Shown here piece after piece: positions 1 through 21,425 of a stretch of 38,484 nt of DNA (position 1 is the stretch's first letter; each line of letters begins with the position of its first letter). Where the stretch lies: contig JACRBX010000194.1 in assembly GCA_016219225.1 (NCBI GenBank), positions 1-38,484 on the forward strand. Reading direction: 5' to 3'. The notes below the pieces were generated by a model. The model saw nothing but the letters and a program-made list of their open reading frames with translations, was not told the DNA's origin and did no database searches. The DNA comes from Deltaproteobacteria bacterium. GTDB taxonomy: Bacteria > Desulfobacterota > RBG-13-43-22. The position numbers and the translations under genes were made by a program.

Positions 1-1726
1 CCGATGCATCGATCCTACAAGGAGTCCGAGAAGTTCTAACCAACTCTCCCGCAATTCGCTCTACTTCTGTAGCCCGATCTCCTCTCCCATTCCCAAGCGA
101 GATCCCCACTGTTTTGTCAAATGCTGAGGTTGCCGCATTAACCGTCTTGTTCTCTATACCCAATAAACCCGCGGCTATAGAGAAATGTAGCCAATCTCTC
201 AGGCTAAAACCATTATCCTTCTCCAAGAATTGTATGACATCAAGCACTAAGGATGTCTTGTCAACCGTGATGTTGCTATAGAGTTCGATTTCATATTCTG
301 AGTTGTTGGTCAGAATGGTCATAATAATGCGGTGAAGAATGTCCGAGTATTCTTGGTAGCAGGATAGTTCGCGTAAAGCCCTCCCCGACGAGGTTTGCAG
401 TGCCAGGATTTGCTTTACTTGCTCCAAGATCTCTCGGAAGTTAGTGCCTTTGACAAGGTCTGGTTTGCTTGCTTCGATGAGGCGCAGATCCTCATTTACG
501 GCGTTCCGTAACCAATTGTCGTAGTCTGTTGACGGGGTAATAAATCTGGCACCTTTATTAATGTCCGATAACGTGAAAAGCCCTGGTACAAAATCTCTGT
601 CTACTAGACGATATAACGATATGGCCTTCTCCCCTCTATTAGAGTTTTGATAGCCCAAGATGGAGTCTTGAATGCCACTCCAGCAATTGTCACCGAACTG
701 ACAGCATGACTTCGCCAAACAGTTCTTCATCTCGAATGAGTATTTACTTTTCTCCCAGTTGCGATGAAAAATGCCATCATGGATAACCGGAATCACATGT
801 TTTGAGGCAACTAACTGCTGCGTAGAAGCGACAATCGTGTCAAACCAGCTTCGTTCGATTCTCTTTGCCGTTCGAGTAAGAGTAAACTCTGGTGCAACTC
901 CTACATCTGCTCCATACGTATAAAGGCTAATCTGGATTGTATCATTGTCAACAATTATGGTCCGAAATCGCGGCATATAGCTGGACAATAGAACGGTGAG
1001 GTTCTTGGGACGGTTTGTCACGGAAAACATATTCTGCAAGACTCGAATGCTGTTTGTAATCTGCTCGCGTGAAGGACTACGGCTCTCAAGCATGTGAAAT
1101 GGCTCATGTGCACGGGAATAGTCGCAGAAAGGATTTATCAAAACTATCGTTACTCTGACGCCAGAGTTCATTGCACTGAGAAGCGTAGTTCTGACTTCTG
1201 ATTGGTCGGTAAACTTGTCGAGAGTGTGCCCAGATATCAGCAGGGTTTGTTTCGCGCGTCCCAAGATTTCATTAAGGCTTATAGCGCCCTCGTCTGCTTC
1301 AAGGAGCGGAGTTGAGTATTTGATTCCCTTTACAAGATAGGTAAGGTTGTCAGAGTATTTTGACTCGTTGCTGAAATCAACCCACTGTCGATTAGAAAGG
1401 AAGCCGGGTATCTCTGCTTCTTTCAATATAAGAGGAATGACTTTTCTTTGTTGTTCTGTGCGGACACACAAATCAATTGCCCGAAGGTACTCTTCCCTTA
1501 CCCAGTTAGACCTTAATGACTCAGGAGATACGACCATGCACACGGTTCTGCTCTCGTTGAGTCCTTTTTCAATAGCCTCCACAAATAAATCTCCGGGCAA
1601 CAGCTTGTCTTGATCTATCCAGACTTTGATCCCATTTTGTCTGAGGTCTTCCCACAACTTGTTGACGAAAACTTGATCCCTGGAACTGTAACTCAGGAAG
1701 GTATCGAACTTGTAATTATTGTTCAT
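1..1726 (-). CDS. TIR-domain protein with PLD-like middle domain, partial (C-terminus off window)
   Basis: An uninterrupted minus-strand frame of 575 codons runs off the left edge. The ATG is preceded by AGGAGA at good spacing. Residues 1-135 form a TIR domain: the FLSYSSRD box (10-17), then the SNWVREEY segment, where W75 and E79 match the W-x3-E signature and E79 would be the NADase glutamate. Residues ~158-305 resemble a phospholipase D-like fold (LLISGHTLD strand; RFRTIIVDNDTIQISLY where HxKxxxxD is expected), but His and Lys of the HKD motif appear to be Arg, so nuclease or lipase activity is doubtful. Residues ~306-575 are unrecognised and include a Cys cluster (C336, C341, C342, C348). 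TIR proteins of this kind commonly act in antiphage NAD+ depletion. That role, and sensing by the rest of the protein, is inference. Base composition looks more AT-rich than the genes to the right. Confidence 0.85.
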   Translation of the reverse strand, partial: MNNNYKFDTFLSYSSRDQVFVNKLWEDLRQNGIKVWIDQDKLLPGDLFVEAIEKGLNESRTVCMVVSPESLRSNWVREEYLRAIDLCVRTEQQRKVIPLILKEAEIPGFLSNRQWVDFSNESKYSDNLTYLVKGIKYSTPLLEADEGAISLNEILGRAKQTLLISGHTLDKFTDQSEVRTTLLSAMNSGVRVTIVLINPFCDYSRAHEPFHMLESRSPSREQITNSIRVLQNMFSVTNRPKNLTVLLSSYMPRFRTIIVDNDTIQISLYTYGADVGVAPEFTLTRTAKRIERSWFDTIVASTQQLVASKHVIPVIHDGIFHRNWEKSKYSFEMKNCLAKSCCQFGDNCWSGIQDSILGYQNSNRGEKAISLYRLVDRDFVPGLFTLSDINKGARFITPSTDYDNWLRNAVNEDLRLIEASKPDLVKGTNFREILEQVKQILALQTSSGRALRELSCYQEYSDILHRIIMTILTNNSEYEIELYSNITVDKTSLVLDVIQFLEKDNGFSLRDWLHFSIAAGLLGIENKTVNAATSAFDKTVGISLGNGRGDRATEVERIAGELVRTSRTPCRIDAS

Positions 1727-2197: not shown

Positions 2198-2399
2198 AAG
2201 ATTTTTTTCCCCTTTAGGGCCTTTATTCTTGATCTAATTTATTGATTTTTTAATTTATTTGGCCGGGAAGTGGCCGTCTTCCGCAACAACCTGGACAGGT
2301 AGAGTCGTTGGGATAACGTGTTTTCCTTCCCAGTCCAACTTGACTTTATGGGCCTTGGCTTCGATCAAGGCAAGGCTTGACAAATCAATTAGTTTTCTT

Positions 2400-2516
2400 G
2401 ATACTCGGACCATTCATGAGTTACTGGGGCATAGTGATGTCAGAACCACCATGATCTACACCCACACGGTGGAGAGCGTCACGATCAATGAGGCCGAGAG
2501 CCCCCTTGATTTCTGA
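2400..2516 (+). pseudogene. tyrosine recombinase (integrase) C-terminal fragment
   Basis: The frame encodes TRTIHELLGHSDVRTTMIY followed by TH and ends in ESPLDF-stop. This is the classic C-terminal box of phage/integron-type tyrosine recombinases, with the second catalytic His (LLGH) and the nucleophilic Tyr (MIYTH) retained. Upstream of about 2400 the frame no longer resembles an integrase, and the catalytic Arg region and core-binding domain are absent. It is therefore the 3' stump of an integrase, probably left by deletion or recombination at the edge of an acquired segment that includes the TIR gene. It cannot be active alone. Confidence 0.8.
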
Positions 2517-2916: not shown

Positions 2917-2936
2917 TAGGAGTAGAAGAAGTCATT

Positions 2937-3269
2937 ATGGAAGAAATTTTACTCTATTCTTTGCCGGCCTGACCGGGGTGTGTGGCGGCGAAAGAGTTCT
3001 TTCGTCAAAAAGGGATTGCCTTTCAGGAATTCGATCTTTCCAAAGACCAAGGGGCCGTAACCCGGATGCTCAGGTTGACCCGGCAGAAGAGGGTGCCGGT
3101 CATTCAAAAAGGGGAGAAGTATGTGGTCGGGTTTCATGCCGAGGAACTTGAAAAATTGATAAAACCTATTACCGATCAATATATCCATGTCGTGGCCGGG
3201 ATTACCGGCACCAAAGGACGGCTTCTGAAGGCCTTAAAGGCGGAGAAGGAGAAGGAAAGGAATTTGTGA
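2937..3269 (+). CDS. glutaredoxin-like selenoprotein (UGA decoded as selenocysteine at residue 12)
   Basis: The ATG at 2937 opens a 110-codon frame with one internal TGA at 2970-2972. Read through, the N-terminus is MEEILLYSLPAUPGCVAAKE: a glutaredoxin first strand followed by U-P-G-C in place of the usual C-x-x-C redox motif. Residues 52-65 (RVPVIQKGEKYVVGF) supply the cis-proline and the Gly-Phe of the glutathione-binding face. The helix AAKEFFRQKGI and strand FQEFDLS complete the fold, and residues ~80-110 are a basic C-terminal tail. The UGA falls exactly on the nucleophilic Cys position, the frame is open on both sides, and a SECIS-like hairpin follows at suitable distance. A conventional caller would start at 2982 and lose the active site. 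Likely role: thiol-disulfide or deglutathionylation chemistry in the cytoplasm. It requires SelA/B/C/D encoded elsewhere. Confidence 0.85.
2970..3006 (+). promoter_or_regulatory. bacterial SECIS-like element for the UGA codon
   Basis: Downstream of the TGA, GGCGAAAG (2987-2994) pairs with CTTTCGTC (2999-3006) around the four-base loop AGTT, giving an 8-bp stem with one G-U. The apical loop begins 22 bases after the UGA, within the spacing known for bacterial SECIS elements, and contains a G. The sequence also encodes the protein. Recognition by SelB is inferred, not shown. Confidence 0.6.
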
Positions 3270-3285
3270 GCCCCATGTGAAAATC

Positions 3286-3316
3286 CGCCTGGATTCCCGT
3301 CTGCGCGGGAATGACG
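3286..3316. repeat. short palindromic dispersed repeat between convergent genes
   Basis: ATTCCCG (3293-3299) and CGGGAAT (3306-3312) form a perfect 7-bp hairpin within GGATTCCCGTCTGCGCGGG and a trailing AATGACG. This motif type is widely scattered in proteobacterial genomes. It sits between the 3' ends of the glutaredoxin and ackA and could serve as a bidirectional terminator or mRNA-stabilising hairpin. Confidence 0.6.
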
Positions 3317-3336: not shown

Positions 3337-4560
3337 TTATCTCTGCCGATCGTTCACCAAAAAGGCCTTGAGAAAGGCCGAGCGGGCGATGACGATCTCC
3401 TCGTTAGTGGGGATGACCAGGATCTTTACCGGACTTCGGTCCGTGCTGATGAACCCGGACAGGCCGTTAATGACCTCTCGATTTTTCTTTTCATCGATTT
3501 CCATTCCCAATGAATCCAAGCCTTCCAGCAGGGCGGCCCTGACCTCCGGCGTATTTTCACCGATGCCGCCGGTAAAGATGAGGACGTCCGCTCCCCGTAA
3601 AACAAAGAAATAAGCCCCAAGATATTTTCGCAGAGAATGGATGAACATCCGGAAGGCCAGATCGGCCCGGGTATTACCTTGCCCGCGAGCCGAAAGGATC
3701 AGACGGAGGTCCCGGCCGATCCCGCTGACGGCGGCCAGGCCGCTTCCGTGATTCAATGTCCTCATGATCTCTTCCAAAGAGGCATGGGTCTTGGCCATGA
3801 CATAAGGGATGATGGCCGCATCGATCGTCCCCGGACGGGTCCCCATCATCAAACCTTCCATGGGGGTGAAACCCATACTGGTTTCTACTGGACGGCCTTG
3901 CTCGAAAGCCATCATGCTGGCCCCGTTGCCCAAATGGGTGGCAATCAGTCTGAGTGTCGAAAGTGGTCTTCCCAGCAGCTTGGAAGCTTCCTGGGTCACA
4001 TAATCATAGGAGATCCCGTGGAAACCATATCGGCGGACACCATACTTTTCATGCCATTCCAGGGGGAGTGGATAAAGATAGGCCTGTTTCGTCAGCTTTC
4101 GAAAAAAGGCGGTGTCAAAATGGGCGATTTGCGGGCAACGGGGAAGCATTCGCCGGCAGGCTTCGATGCAGGCGATATTGGCCGGGAGGTGAAGGGGGGC
4201 GAGATCGATCAACCCTTTCATTTGAGCTAAATTTTCATCGCTCACCAAAAGGGGTTCGGTGAATAAATCGCGGCCGTGGACGACTCGGTGTCCGACGGCC
4301 CCGATTTCTTCCCGGTTTTTTAGAAAGCCGATTTTCGGGTCCAGAAGGGCGGCAAAAACCAGCTCCAGGGCCTTTTCATGGTTCGGACAATCGCACCTAT
4401 CCTCCACGACCAAAGCCTTGTCCATGGACTCAAAAAAGCAGGTCGTCCCGGATTCGCCGATTTTTTCGATCCGGCCGGAGTGGAGCAGACGCTCTTCGGG
4501 CATTTGTAATAATTTATACTTCAGCGAAGAGCTGCCGCTGTTCAGGACCAGGATGTGCAT
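3337..4560 (-). CDS. ackA: acetate kinase
   Basis: At 407 residues this is full length for acetate kinase, which converts acetyl phosphate and ADP to acetate and ATP in the cytoplasm. Family signatures are present in order: VLNSGSSSLKYKL at 5-17, GHRVVHG near residue 90, the ATHLGNGAS phosphate loop, GFTPMEGLMMGTRPG, and FTGGIGENTPEVR near the C-terminus. It follows xsc by 51 bases on the same strand. Xsc releases acetyl phosphate, so AckA gives direct substrate-level phosphorylation with no phosphotransacetylase needed. The ribosome binding site is weak (AAGG about 12 bases upstream), so expression may be coupled to xsc. Confidence 0.97.
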   Translation of the reverse strand: MHILVLNSGSSSLKYKLLQMPEERLLHSGRIEKIGESGTTCFFESMDKALVVEDRCDCPNHEKALELVFAALLDPKIGFLKNREEIGAVGHRVVHGRDLFTEPLLVSDENLAQMKGLIDLAPLHLPANIACIEACRRMLPRCPQIAHFDTAFFRKLTKQAYLYPLPLEWHEKYGVRRYGFHGISYDYVTQEASKLLGRPLSTLRLIATHLGNGASMMAFEQGRPVETSMGFTPMEGLMMGTRPGTIDAAIIPYVMAKTHASLEEIMRTLNHGSGLAAVSGIGRDLRLILSARGQGNTRADLAFRMFIHSLRKYLGAYFFVLRGADVLIFTGGIGENTPEVRAALLEGLDSLGMEIDEKKNREVINGLSGFISTDRSPVKILVIPTNEEIVIARSAFLKAFLVNDRQR

Positions 4561-7480: not shown

Positions 7481-9022
7481 TTAGTTGTCATGGGAAATTT
7501 TAAACTGTTCCAAATGCATGGCTTCTTTGGATTCCACGGAAATCCTTTTGCCGATCCTTTGTTCCACTTCCTCCATGGCCGGGTGCTCTTCATCCAGCAG
7601 CAGACCGGCGATTTCGGGATGAACCTGTAAGGTCAGGTTGTCGCTTTGGATTTCCCAGGCTTCCCGTTCGATCTGGCGGAAGATCTGATAACAAATGGAA
7701 TTTTTTGATTTAAGCCAACCTTCCCCTTCACAATAAAAACAAGGTTCCCGGAACAGACGGGTCAGATTTTCCCGTGTCCGTTTCCGAGTCATTTCAATTA
7801 AACCGAGTTCCGACATCTTAAGGACATTGGTCTTGTTTTTATCCCGCTTCAGGGCTTCTTTGAGGGCGTTAAATACCTTTTCCCGGTCGCCCTTTTTCTC
7901 CATGTCGATAAAATCAATAACTACCAGCCCGCCGATATTACGCAGCCGTAACTGGTAAGCGATCTCTTTGACGGCCTCCAGATTGGTCTTTAGAATCGTT
8001 TCTTCCAGATTTCTCTTGCCCACATATCGGCCGGTATTGACATCGATGGAGGTTAAGGCTTCGGTGGCCTCAATAACGATATATCCACCGGATTTCAACC
8101 AGACCTTTTTGCCTAAGGCCCGGCCAACCTCGACTTCGATCCCATAACCGTCAAAAAGGGGTTCTTTCCCTTCGTATAAATGGACGAGATGTTTCAGTTT
8201 AGGCATAAAGGTATCGATAAATTGAAGAATCTGCTCATACTCCGGCCGGGAATCGATTACTAAACGATCCACTTCTTTAGTAAATAGATCCCGGACGGCC
8301 CTTAAAGTGATATTCAAATCCCGGTGAATCAGACTGGGAATAGGGGCCCGAGGCATTTTTTGTTGGATATTAGAAAAGAGTTTGATCAAAAAATCCATCT
8401 CGGTCTTAATTTTGTCTTTGGGCACCCCCTCGCTGGCGGTTCTGGCAATAAGGCCGAATCCATCTGGTTTGATACTGGTTAAAAACTCCCTGAGTTTTTT
8501 ACGCTCGTTTTCATCTTCGATCCGGCGGGAAACACCCACATGATCCATGGTGGGCATGAGGACCAAATGGCGGCCAGGCAGGGAGATGTGGGTGGTTATC
8601 CGTGCACCCTTTGAACCAAGAGGTTCCCGGACAACCTGGACCAGGAGTTCCTGACCTTCATTGAGCAAGTCCTCAATATTAAAATAGAGCTGATGGGGCA
8701 TCATTTTTTCTTCGAGTTCGCCGTCCAGTTCCCCCTGGCCATCCTCAAGGTCCTCCTCCTCATCGTCCTTCAGCATGGCCTCGAACTCTTCAAAATTATC
8801 CGTAACATCCGTAATATATAAAAAAGCCGCCCGTTCCAGCCCGATGTCGACAAAGGCGGCCTGCATTCCGGGCAGGACCCGGACCACCCTTCCCTTGTAA
8901 ATATTTCCAGCCAGGCTATACCGATTAGGTCTCTCGACATGGAGTTCGGCCAGGATGTTGTTTTCGATAAGGGCCACCCGGGTCTCATAGGAACGGGTAT
9001 TAATCAGTAATTCAGTGCTCAT
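7481..9022 (-). CDS. rng: ribonuclease G/E family endoribonuclease
   Basis: At 513 residues this is RNase G sized and lacks the long RNase E scaffold. It cleaves single-stranded AU-rich RNA and matures rRNA in the cytoplasm. The S1 RNA-binding domain (~38-140) carries an acidic insertion (residues 86-105, mostly Asp/Glu) not usual in E. coli RNase G. The catalytic DNase I-like region holds SIDVNTG (D327) and VVIDFIDM (D370, D373), the Mg-binding acids. The Zn-link CFYC (C428, C431) supports tetramer assembly. It starts at ATG with no Shine-Dalgarno; the candidate -10 box lies only seven bases upstream, suggesting a leaderless mRNA. It is divergent from the sirC operon. Confidence 0.95.
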   Translation of the reverse strand: MSTELLINTRSYETRVALIENNILAELHVERPNRYSLAGNIYKGRVVRVLPGMQAAFVDIGLERAAFLYITDVTDNFEEFEAMLKDDEEEDLEDGQGELDGELEEKMMPHQLYFNIEDLLNEGQELLVQVVREPLGSKGARITTHISLPGRHLVLMPTMDHVGVSRRIEDENERKKLREFLTSIKPDGFGLIARTASEGVPKDKIKTEMDFLIKLFSNIQQKMPRAPIPSLIHRDLNITLRAVRDLFTKEVDRLVIDSRPEYEQILQFIDTFMPKLKHLVHLYEGKEPLFDGYGIEVEVGRALGKKVWLKSGGYIVIEATEALTSIDVNTGRYVGKRNLEETILKTNLEAVKEIAYQLRLRNIGGLVVIDFIDMEKKGDREKVFNALKEALKRDKNKTNVLKMSELGLIEMTRKRTRENLTRLFREPCFYCEGEGWLKSKNSICYQIFRQIEREAWEIQSDNLTLQVHPEIAGLLLDEEHPAMEEVEQRIGKRISVESKEAMHLEQFKISHDN

Positions 9023-19039: not shown

Positions 19040-20731
19040 ATGTCCAATAATGCCCCGGTTTCTTCCCATTTTATCAAAGAGATCATTTTAGAGGATTTAA
19101 AAAATAATAAAAATCAGGGCCGGGTCCATACCCGTTTTCCACCCGAACCCAACGGTTATCTCCATATCGGCCATGCCAAGTCCATCTGTCTCAACTTCGG
19201 GTTGGCCAAAGAATTCGGGGGGTATTGCAATCTACGTTTTGACGACACCAATCCCACCAAAGAGGAAGTGGAATATGTGGACTCGATTAAAGAGGATGTA
19301 CGCTGGTTGGGATTCAGTTGGGATGATCGGGAATTCTATGCCTCGGATTATTTTGATCACCTTTATGAATTTGCCCTGCAGTTAATCGAAAAAGGCCAGG
19401 CCTATGTCTGTGACCTGAGCCCCGATGAGGTCCGCAAATACCGGGGAACGTTGACCGAGCCGGGCAAGGAAAGTCCCTTTCGAAATCGCTCCAGAGAGGA
19501 AAACCTGGATTTATTTACCCGCATGCGGGCTGGTGAATTTGATGAAGGGACTCGAACCTTACGGGCCAAGGTCGATATGTCCCACCCGAATATCAATATG
19601 CGGGATCCGGTCATGTACCGGATTTTGAAGGCCAGCCATCATCGGACCGGGGATAAATGGTGTATCTATCCCAGTTATGATTACGCCCACGGACAGAGCG
19701 ATTCCCTGGAAGGCATCACGCACTCGATCTGCACCCTGGAGTTTGAAGACCATCGACCGCTCTATGACTGGTTTTTGGAGGCCCTGGAGATTCACCATCC
19801 GCGGCAGATCGAATTCGCCCGTTTAAATCTGACCTATACGGTCATGAGCAAGCGCAAGCTTTTAAAACTGGTCCAGGAAGGGCTTGTTTCCGGCTGGGAC
19901 GACCCCCGGATGCCGACGATTTCCGGTTTGCGCCGGCGGGGCTATACTCCGGAATCGCTGCGAAATTTTTGTGATCGGATCGGGGTGGCCAAGAGCAACA
20001 GCGTGGTGGATATCGCCCTGCTGGAGCACTGCCTGCGGGAGGACCTGAATAAGCGGGCACAGCGGGTCATGGCGGTACTGCGGCCCCTCAAGGTGGTCAT
20101 AGACAATTATCCTGAGGATCAGGTAGAAGAACTCGAGGCCGTTAATAATCCGGAAGATCCCGCTATGGGGACCAGGATGGTGCCTTTTTCCAAGGTCCTT
20201 TACATTGAAGCCGATGATTTCAGGGAAGACCCGCCCAAAAAATTCTTCCGTCTGGCTCCGGGCCGGGAGGTTCGTTTGCGGTATGGCTATTTTATTACCT
20301 GCGTCGGTGTGGTTAGGGATGAACAGACCGGAGAGGTCACCGAACTCCATTGCACCTATGATCCGGCCACCCGCGGGGGGGATTCACCGGACGGTCGCAA
20401 AGTCAAGGCGACTTTACACTGGGTATCGGCCGCCCGGGCGGTTGAGGCCGAAGTTCGTTTATACGAGCACCTGTTCCTGAAGTCCGATCCTGAAGATGTG
20501 GAGGAGGGAGATTTTACCAGGGTCTTGAATCCTAATTCTTTGGTCACCTTGACCGCCAGCAAGTTGGAACCCGCTCTGGCCGGGGCCGCTCCGGGGATGC
20601 TTTTTCAGTTCGAAAGGCAGGGGTATTTTTGTGTCGATCCCGTGGAGATGAAGGCCGGCAGATTGGTCTTCAACCGTACGGTGCCTTTAAAGGATTCCTG
20701 GGCCAAGATTGAGAAGGGGGAGAAAAGTTAG
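19040..20731 (+). CDS. glnS: glutaminyl-tRNA synthetase
   Basis: This 563-residue class I synthetase charges tRNA-Gln. [20 protein letters not shown] carries the HIGH motif, and [10 protein letters not shown] is the KMSKS equivalent. [20 protein letters not shown] and [20 protein letters not shown] are GlnRS-specific and separate it from GluRS. The C-terminal anticodon-binding beta-barrels (~340-555) are complete. A GGAG-containing site precedes the ATG. Its presence implies direct Gln-tRNA charging rather than sole use of the GatCAB route. The last four bases overlap the convergent PIN toxin gene. Confidence 0.97.
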
Positions 20732-21153
20732 ATTCTAATCGCCTCAACCCGCAGTCGCTCGATCTCCCGAAGGAAGTCCCGCACAGTTACGATCTTTATC
20801 GAAGAGACCTCCTTGGGGAAATGTTTTTTGTTTTTGGTCACCAGTAAGGCCGCATGGCCGGCCAGGGCGGCGGAAATAAACTTTTCATCATCCCCGTCCT
20901 TACACAACCCGCTGGCCGCTGCCGGTCTGACTTTAACGGCCTTTTCAAAAACAAGTTCGAGTAATTCCTCGCTCTGGGACGCGGGAATGGCGTTATCGAA
21001 GAGATGAAGGACTCGGACATATTCATCAAACACCCCCGGTGTGACAACGAGATGAAACTCTCCGTCCCGGAAGGCTTGAATGATTTTTGCCGCGCCGCCC
21101 TCGGCATTGAGCAACCCGGCCAGGAAAATGTTGGTATCTATAACCGCCCTCAA
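20728..21153 (-). CDS. PIN-domain ribonuclease toxin (VapC-like)
   Basis: This 141-residue PIN protein starts at TTG and overlaps the antitoxin stop as TTGA. Acidic active-site residues are in [10 protein letters not shown] (D6), VFDEYVRVL (the helix Glu) and [15 protein letters not shown] (the Asp cluster), so the Mg-dependent RNase site looks intact. The family (COG1569 type) is annotated as the toxin of AbrB- or RHH-linked modules. The cognate antitoxin is directly upstream. The gene is convergent with glnS and overlaps it by four bases. Confidence 0.85.
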
Positions 21154-21425
21154 CGGGCCGCCTTCTTCCGGGCGGTCTTGACGGCCTCATCGATCTTCTT
21201 TGCGGTTATACCAGCCCTTTTCGCCGTTTCCCTTACACTCCCGAGGGTTTCGTCGAATTTCCGCGCCCAATCTACGGTTTTATCGGAAACCCGTTTCGGA
21301 GTCATGATGATCTGTCCGGTCTCATAGGATACCTCGATGAAATCGCCCTGCTCGATATGGGCCTTCCTGCGGATATCGGCAGGGATTGTCACCTGAGCGA
21401 ACCGCTTTACTTTTACCAATGACAT
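21150..21425 (-). CDS. AbrB/MazE-type antitoxin
   Basis: This 91-residue protein has an N-terminal SpoVT/AbrB swapped-hairpin DNA-binding domain (VKVKRFAQVTIPADIRRKAH then IEQGDFIEVSYETGQIIMTPK). A Lys/Ala-rich C-terminal helix ([19 protein letters not shown]) probably wraps the toxin. GAGGAGG precedes the ATG. It is the first gene of the two-gene module and likely autoregulates it. Confidence 0.87.
   Translation of the reverse strand: MSLVKVKRFAQVTIPADIRRKAHIEQGDFIEVSYETGQIIMTPKRVSDKTVDWARKFDETLGSVRETAKRAGITAKKIDEAVKTARKKAAR

What the first reader, a model, noticed from the sequence alone, without database searches (positions are those of the whole stretch)
2937..3269. Selenocysteine glutaredoxin hidden by an in-frame UGA
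An open frame continues through one TGA that falls exactly on the first Cys of the glutaredoxin redox motif (U-P-G-C). A hairpin 22 bases further on resembles a bacterial SECIS. Standard annotation would start at 2982 and produce a protein without an active site. Selenoprotein redoxins are known in deltaproteobacteria; whether this subfamily, with its basic ~30-residue tail, is described I cannot tell.
Basis: partly seen in the sequence, partly recalled or inferred. Interest (0 to 1): 0.78.

Follow-up and report, generated by a model that had tools for sequence, protein, structure and literature searches.

The report
Selenocysteine glutaredoxin with borrowed antitoxin tail
This gene almost certainly makes a small redox protein that uses the rare amino acid selenocysteine at its active site, a known kind of protein that gene finders miss, and in this one genome its end has been swapped for the toxin-binding tail of an antitoxin.

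Summary
The frame 2937-3266 encodes a glutaredoxin domain in which TGA 2970-2972 sits on the first active-site Cys (U-P-G-C). In 72 homologous loci from the same phylum this position is always Sec (40) or Cys (32). A hairpin with its loop 22 nt after the UGA is shared by the Sec genes and nearly absent from the Cys genes (Mann-Whitney p = 2e-10 under synonymous-codon control). The genome has selA, selB and a Sec-containing selD, plus a second UGA glutaredoxin (native copy, contig C238) and a UGA UXX-star gene beside selB. An intact tRNA-Sec is missing from this draft assembly: only its 3' half is present, and the contig carrying its upstream flank ends just short of it. Four close relatives have the gene. 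Bacterial Sec glutaredoxins are already known. The new point concerns the "basic ~30-residue tail". It is not a subfamily trait: residues 75-110 are the C-terminal VapC-binding tail of a SpoVT/AbrB-type VapB antitoxin (28 of 36 identical), joined in frame exactly where the redoxin domain ends, with no VapC beside it. The chimera was seen in this genome only and is most likely a recombination product. An assembly chimera and a functional tail are both unproven.

The parts
2937..3269 (+). Chimeric CDS: Sec-glutaredoxin domain (residues 1-74) fused in frame to a VapB-type antitoxin tail (residues 75-110)
   Evidence: Read-through translation; Pfam PF00462 E 2e-13; nucleotide match to native U-Grx genes ends at 3160 and match to vapB genes starts at 3159
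2970..2972 (+). Sec codon UGA (residue 12, first position of the UPGC redox motif)
   Evidence: Aligned to Sec (40) or Cys (32) in 72 homologous loci
2987..3006 (+). bSECIS hairpin: stem 2987-2994/2999-3006 (one G-U pair), loop AGUU 2995-2998 with a G, 22 nt after the UGA
   Evidence: Folding; p 0.018 against synonymous recoding, conserved in Sec and not in Cys homologs; covariation in the homologous helix
2937..3158 (+). Glutaredoxin-like (YruB/NrdH-type) domain, dispersed duplicate of the native U-Grx on contig C238 (83% aa identity)
   Evidence: dN 0.075, dS 0.81 against the native copy; 3ZIJ match covers residues 1-75
3159..3266 (+). C-terminal tail of a SpoVT/AbrB-type VapB antitoxin (28 of 36 identical to VapB tails), same stop position
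   Evidence: donor family has PF04014 and is followed by a PIN-domain VapC
2918..2922 (+). Possible Shine-Dalgarno AGGAG, 14 nt before the ATG (spacing long)
   Evidence: Read directly from sequence; not tested
3291..3314 (-). REP-like palindromic repeat just after the stop codon
   Evidence: a like element lies at the broken end of contig C177
2397..2468 (+). Remnant of the C-terminus of a tyrosine recombinase, upstream of the duplicate
   Evidence: PF00589 positions 145-168 only, E 6e-5, below the curated cut-off

Best explanation
The gene encodes a selenoprotein glutaredoxin. Ribosomes insert selenocysteine at UGA 2970-2972, recruited by SelB bound to the hairpin at 2987-3006, giving a U-x-x-C active site on a YruB/NrdH-like redoxin fold. 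Sec should act as the attacking nucleophile and Cys15 as the resolving residue in disulfide reduction (inferred from the family). The window gene is a second, relocated copy of the lineage's native U-Grx gene. During or after relocation, recombination replaced the last few codons by the 3' end of a lost vapBC operon, leaving the VapB toxin-binding tail as a C-terminal appendage. Shown here: UGA conservation, SECIS conservation, Sec machinery, purifying selection on the redoxin part, and the identity of the tail. Inferred: actual Sec insertion, redox activity, and that the tail is tolerated baggage rather than a working antitoxin.
For: Residue 12 is Sec or Cys in 72 of 72 loci (the register was read by script within 3 codons of the BLAST position). 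Sec versus Cys hairpin contrast: median z -2.43 against -0.79, p 1.7e-10; hairpin sequence signature in 34 of 40 Sec and 1 of 32 Cys genes. Compensatory pairs C-G to U-A and A-U to G-C in the stem: 93% of cells pair, against 36-70% for slid helices. In the window's subfamily the protein reads FFRQ instead of FLSQ, yet the hairpin is kept with its 3' arm shifted by one base. selA E 4e-161, selB wing domain E 1e-22, selD E 9e-118 with catalytic UGA. Other UGA genes in the genome: native U-Grx on C238 and a UXX-star beside selB. dN/dS about 0.09 between window and native copies. Tail.
Against: No complete tRNA-Sec in the held assembly: Rfam gave no hit over threshold and only the 3' 65 nt were found. 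The SECIS energy of the window sequence alone is not exceptional against dinucleotide shuffles. Everything comes from one draft assembly of 353 contigs, 98.9% complete and 4.8% contaminated by the tool's estimate. No expression data exist. The structure model is too weak to use (mean pLDDT 52).
Confidence: 0.87

Rival explanations
1. The UGA is an ordinary stop. The real product is the 95-residue ORF from GTG 2982, or the locus is a decaying pseudogene of a redoxin.
For: Standard gene calling gives that ORF. The gene is a relocated duplicate beside a recombinase remnant. An intact tRNA-Sec is absent from the assembly.
Against: UGA/Cys at this residue in 72 of 72 loci; hairpin conserved in Sec genes only; Sec machinery and other UGA genes in the genome; strong purifying selection across the whole redoxin part including upstream of the UGA.
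Confidence: 0.04
2. The Sec glutaredoxin is real but the VapB tail is an assembly or binning chimera.
For: One draft metagenome-type assembly; the chimera appears in no other genome searched; a REP-like repeat lies 22 nt after the stop.
Against: The joint is in frame and falls at the end of the redoxin domain. No assembly-breaking repeat was seen at the joint itself. The redoxin half is a distinct paralog, not a copy of C238, and no intact close VapB donor was found in the genome to misjoin with.
Confidence: 0.12
3. The fusion is functional: the redoxin replaces the DNA-binding half of the antitoxin, giving a selenium- and redox-linked VapC inhibitor.
For: The retained piece is the whole C-terminal tail that in VapB wraps VapC (PMC3384007), with the original stop codon. 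It has changed 12-16 nonsynonymous sites per 82 while synonymous sites are saturated.
Against: No vapC beside it. VapB antitoxins found elsewhere in this genome have unlike tails. Selection on the tail may predate the fusion. Single occurrence.
Confidence: 0.06
4. Genome-wide UGA reassignment (Trp or another residue) rather than selenocysteine.
For: Only that a frame is open under such a code.
Against: The native copy, many homologs and the window gene itself end in UGA stops. Homologs carry Cys, not Trp, at the site, and Sec machinery is present.
Confidence: 0.01

Closest known systems
Bacterial selenoprotein glutaredoxin (e.g. WP_010943784.1 in the table of PMC13188914; Grx in the Sargasso Sea set, PMC1088965; Clostridium oremlandii Grx, Kim et al. 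2011, cited there)
   Same: Grx fold, UxxC motif with Sec at the first active-site position, bacterial SECIS directly downstream, deltaproteobacterial-type hosts
   Different: Belongs to a separate clade (5 members, support 99/99, stem length 1.17) and bears a VapB tail
Glutaredoxin-like protein YruB family (TIGR02196) / NrdH redoxins
   Same: Best named family match (71.8 bits); same length and VPV...VGF C-terminal part; no GG-D motif of classical Grx
   Different: Score is below the TIGR02196 cut-off of 88.55; Sec in place of Cys
UXX-star glutaredoxin-like selenoproteins (NF041212, NF041114)
   Same: Related Grx-like fold (61.1 bits to NF041212); the same genome has a true UXX-star with two UGA next to selB
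   Different: Below the cut-off of 66; no C-terminal U-x-x-stop; the motif is UxxC
VapB antitoxin with SpoVT/AbrB domain, of vapBC operons
   Same: Residues 75-110 match VapB residues 41-76, 28 of 36 identical, same stop
   Different: The AbrB DNA-binding domain is missing and no VapC follows

Membership tests
Bacterial selenoprotein (UGA/bSECIS type) | In-frame UGA aligned with Sec or Cys in homologs | tested here: met
   72 of 72 loci
Bacterial selenoprotein (UGA/bSECIS type) | Hairpin just after the UGA with a small apical loop containing G | tested here: met
   Loop AGUU 22 nt after the UGA; Sec-specific conservation and covariation; criterion from PMC1088965
Bacterial selenoprotein (UGA/bSECIS type) | Genome encodes SelA, SelB, SelD | tested here: met
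Bacterial selenoprotein (UGA/bSECIS type) | Genome encodes tRNA-Sec | tested here: inconclusive
   Only the 3' half assembled; flank contig ends near it; intact in four close relatives
Bacterial selenoprotein (UGA/bSECIS type) | Selenium present in the protein | not testable with these tools
   Needs 75Se labelling or mass spectrometry
Glutaredoxin (PF00462) | Score over the curated cut-off with the redox motif in place | tested here: met
   50.8 bits against cut-off 22.9
Classical GSH-dependent glutaredoxin | GG-D type GSH-binding motif after VP | tested here: not met
   RVPVIQKGEKYVVGF here, against VPQIFIGDLHVGGCD in L124; the meaning of the motif is from general knowledge
YruB glutaredoxin (TIGR02196) | Score over cut-off 88.55 | tested here: not met
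   71.8 bits
UXX-star selenoprotein | Score over cut-off and C-terminal UxxStop | tested here: not met
   61.1 against 66 bits; no such C-terminus
VapB antitoxin | SpoVT/AbrB DNA-binding domain | tested here: not met
   Only the C-terminal tail is present; Pfam finds no MazE/AbrB domain in the chimera
VapB antitoxin | Adjacent vapC | tested here: not met
   A REP-like repeat and a converging acetate-kinase-like ORF follow; tblastn of the donor-family VapC finds nothing in the window

The most novel reading that the evidence does not exclude
A selenium-dependent redoxin has captured the toxin-binding tail of a VapB antitoxin and uses it to hold or regulate a PIN-domain RNase, so that VapC inhibition depends on selenocysteine supply or redox state.
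Probability: 0.05. Interest if true: 0.82.

Novelty: new variant of a known kind. Interest (0 to 1): 0.42.

Why it matters
It adds a well-supported clade of Sec glutaredoxins, all Sec in the five copies seen, which ordinary annotation cuts to an inactive stub. The homolog set gives a clean natural experiment, with at least 5 and up to 11 Sec/Cys switches on the tree, in which the SECIS hairpin appears and disappears with the UGA. The in-frame capture of an antitoxin's toxin-binding tail by a selenoprotein is an unusual domain joining, and its function is directly testable.

Tried and rejected
Viral contigs: no relative. Plasmids: only NrdH/Grx-type matches at under 40% identity. Rfam over the window gave only two tRNAs and no SECIS family. 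tRNA scan near selA and selB found nothing. A first regular-expression pass was badly written and was replaced. AlphaFold with two sequences: mean pLDDT 52, not used further. The idea that the tail is a subfamily trait was rejected because the paralog and relatives lack it. The idea that the 94-residue ORF upstream (2632-2916) explains the locus was dropped: no family found. The literature searches listed no paper that by title or abstract describes a glutaredoxin/antitoxin fusion; of the listed papers only a few (PMC1242214, PMC1794560, PMC9312934, PMC13188914, PMC1088965, PMC3384007) were opened, by term search, and only open-licence papers are held.

Full report
OBSERVATION. The frame from ATG 2937 runs through TGA 2970-2972 to a TGA stop at 3267-3269 and reads MEEILLYSLPAUPGCVAAKEFFRQKGIAFQEFDLSKDQGAVTRMLRLTRQKRVPVIQKGEKYVVGFHAEELEKLIKPITDQYIHVVAGITGTKGRLLKALKAEKEKERNL. 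Residues 4-63 match Pfam Glutaredoxin (E 2e-13). A genome-wide glutaredoxin search marks this place and two others as broken by one TGA.

SEC MACHINERY. The window's own genome (G000, 5.93 Mb, 353 contigs) has selA, selB and selD. selD is itself a UGA gene: its frame reads NGARAAGUASKLGPGDL. The third UGA glutaredoxin hit lies a few hundred bases downstream of selB. It contains two UGA codons and scores above the cut-off of the UXX-star selenoprotein family 1 model. The tRNA-Sec covariance model gave no hit over threshold. A pattern search found only a 3' half on contig C145. Those 65 nt are identical to the 3' part of the intact tRNA-Sec of genus-mate G003. All of G001-G004 have an intact tRNA-Sec over threshold. 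The sequence that flanks tRNA-Sec upstream in G003 lies at the very start of G000 contig C177, where the assembly stops in a repeat; the downstream flank is inside another contig, C250. I infer that the intact gene is in an assembly gap and that the C145 piece is an attachment-site-like remnant. This was not proven.

CONSERVATION OF THE UGA. A class-level search (5 genomes) found the subfamily in G000 (two copies), G004, G002 and G001, all with TGA at the same residue. A phylum sample (395 genomes) found 71 genomes with homologs. I read 72 loci (71 distinct sequences) around residue 12: 40 Sec and 32 Cys, nothing else. The reading script searched for U or C within three codons of the position expected from the BLAST alignment, so the register is slightly guided, but every row aligns visibly. 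On the protein tree Sec and Cys are interleaved: 11 changes on the tree, at least 5 forced by well-supported branches. The window's subfamily forms one clade (99/99) on a long stem and is all Sec (few columns, so deep forks are unsure).

SECIS. The window hairpin is GGCGAAAG-AGUU-CUUUCGUC, 2987-3006, with its loop 22 nt after the UGA. Its energy alone is not remarkable against dinucleotide shuffles (z -0.26). Against random synonymous recoding of the same peptide the window has p = 0.018. Across loci the Sec genes have median z -2.43 and the Cys genes -0.79 (Mann-Whitney p 1.7e-10). The signature CGAARGAGT plus CTTTC is present in 34 of 40 Sec and 1 of 32 Cys genes; the single Cys gene that keeps it (L115) looks like a recent Sec-to-Cys change. 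In 34 Sec sequences of the common register, 93% of pair cells are standard pairs, against 36-70% when the helix is slid, with two pairs showing changes on both sides. In the window's subfamily the peptide is FFRQ instead of FLSQ, yet the stem survives with the 3' arm moved by one base, which points to selection on the RNA rather than on the protein. [quoted passage not shown]

THE TAIL. The phylum search returned ORFs of 79-93 residues that match only residues 49-110 of the query. They are SpoVT/AbrB-type antitoxins: MDKAVVTVKGQVVIPS...EIVIKPITDEYIRSMAGITGTKGKLLKALKEEKAKERAL (PF04014 E 1e-11), each followed by a PIN-domain VapC. Nucleotide similarity to native U-Grx genes stops at window position 3160, and similarity to vapB starts at 3159. 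The 36 tail residues are 28/36 identical to VapB tails and end at the same stop codon (sequences). In the Shigella VapBC structure residues 1-45 of VapB form the DNA-binding domain and the C-terminal tail wraps and inhibits VapC (PMC3384007). The chimera therefore keeps the toxin-binding part and lacks the DNA-binding part. No vapC follows: a REP-like palindrome (3291-3314) and a converging acetate-kinase-like ORF (3337-4560) come next. VapBC pairs elsewhere in this genome have unlike tails.

ORIGIN OF THE COPY. The C238, G004, G002 and G001 U-Grx genes share flanking DNA. In C238 the gene lies 12-13 nt after a GDP-mannose 4,6-dehydratase-like gene and behind glycosyltransferase-like genes (names by reading the sequences, not by a family search). 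The window copy shares nothing with that locus except the coding sequence and, with G004, about 14 bases before the start. It lies after a recombinase C-terminal remnant (2397-2468; weak, below the Pfam cut-off). Between window and native copies dN is 0.075 and dS 0.81, so the redoxin part of the relocated gene has stayed under purifying selection. For the tail dN is 0.16-0.22 with synonymous sites saturated; this selection may predate the fusion.

MECHANISM AND STATUS. Most likely: SelB and tRNA-Sec decode UGA 2970 with the help of the hairpin. The product is a U-x-x-C redoxin of YruB/NrdH type, without the GG-D motif seen in classical Grx3-like rows such as L124, so reduction by a thioredoxin-reductase-type partner is as likely as by glutathione (inference). 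The nearest solved structure by sequence is 3ZIJ, deposited as a thioredoxin, matched over residues 1-75. The tail is most likely tolerated baggage.

NOVELTY. Sec glutaredoxins are known: ten in the Sargasso Sea set, one in the Geobacter sulfurreducens table of PMC1242214, and one in the current list with WP_010943784.1 (PMC13188914). What is new here is this all-Sec clade and the chimeric architecture, the latter seen once.

Noticed in passing
L025/L064 (G000 contig C145) 160-224: 3' half of tRNA-Sec, identical to that of G003, with unrelated sequence on both sides: looks like an attachment site of an element that integrates into selC.
   Followed up: partly
L015 (G000 contig C54), about 8697-8910: UXX-star selenoprotein with two in-frame UGA codons just downstream of selB; it scores over the NF041114 cut-off.
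   Followed up: partly
L115 (G053 contig C25): Cys glutaredoxin that still carries the SECIS-like hairpin sequence, a likely recent Sec-to-Cys conversion.
   Followed up: no
window 2-1726 (-): TIR-domain protein (PF13676 E 1.5e-29, weak ThsB_TIR match), cut off by the contig end; possibly a defence gene.
   Followed up: no
window 2397-2468 (+): Degraded tyrosine recombinase C-terminus ending in a THTV...SPLD pattern reminiscent of integron integrases (from memory, untested).
   Followed up: no
window 20728-21186 (-): ORF beginning [19 protein letters not shown], which looks like a PIN-domain putative toxin; not adjacent to the chimera.
   Followed up: no
L017 (G000 contig C238), native locus: The native U-Grx follows a GDP-mannose 4,6-dehydratase-like gene and glycosyltransferase-like genes, with flanks conserved in three relatives: an odd neighbourhood for a redoxin.
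   Followed up: partly
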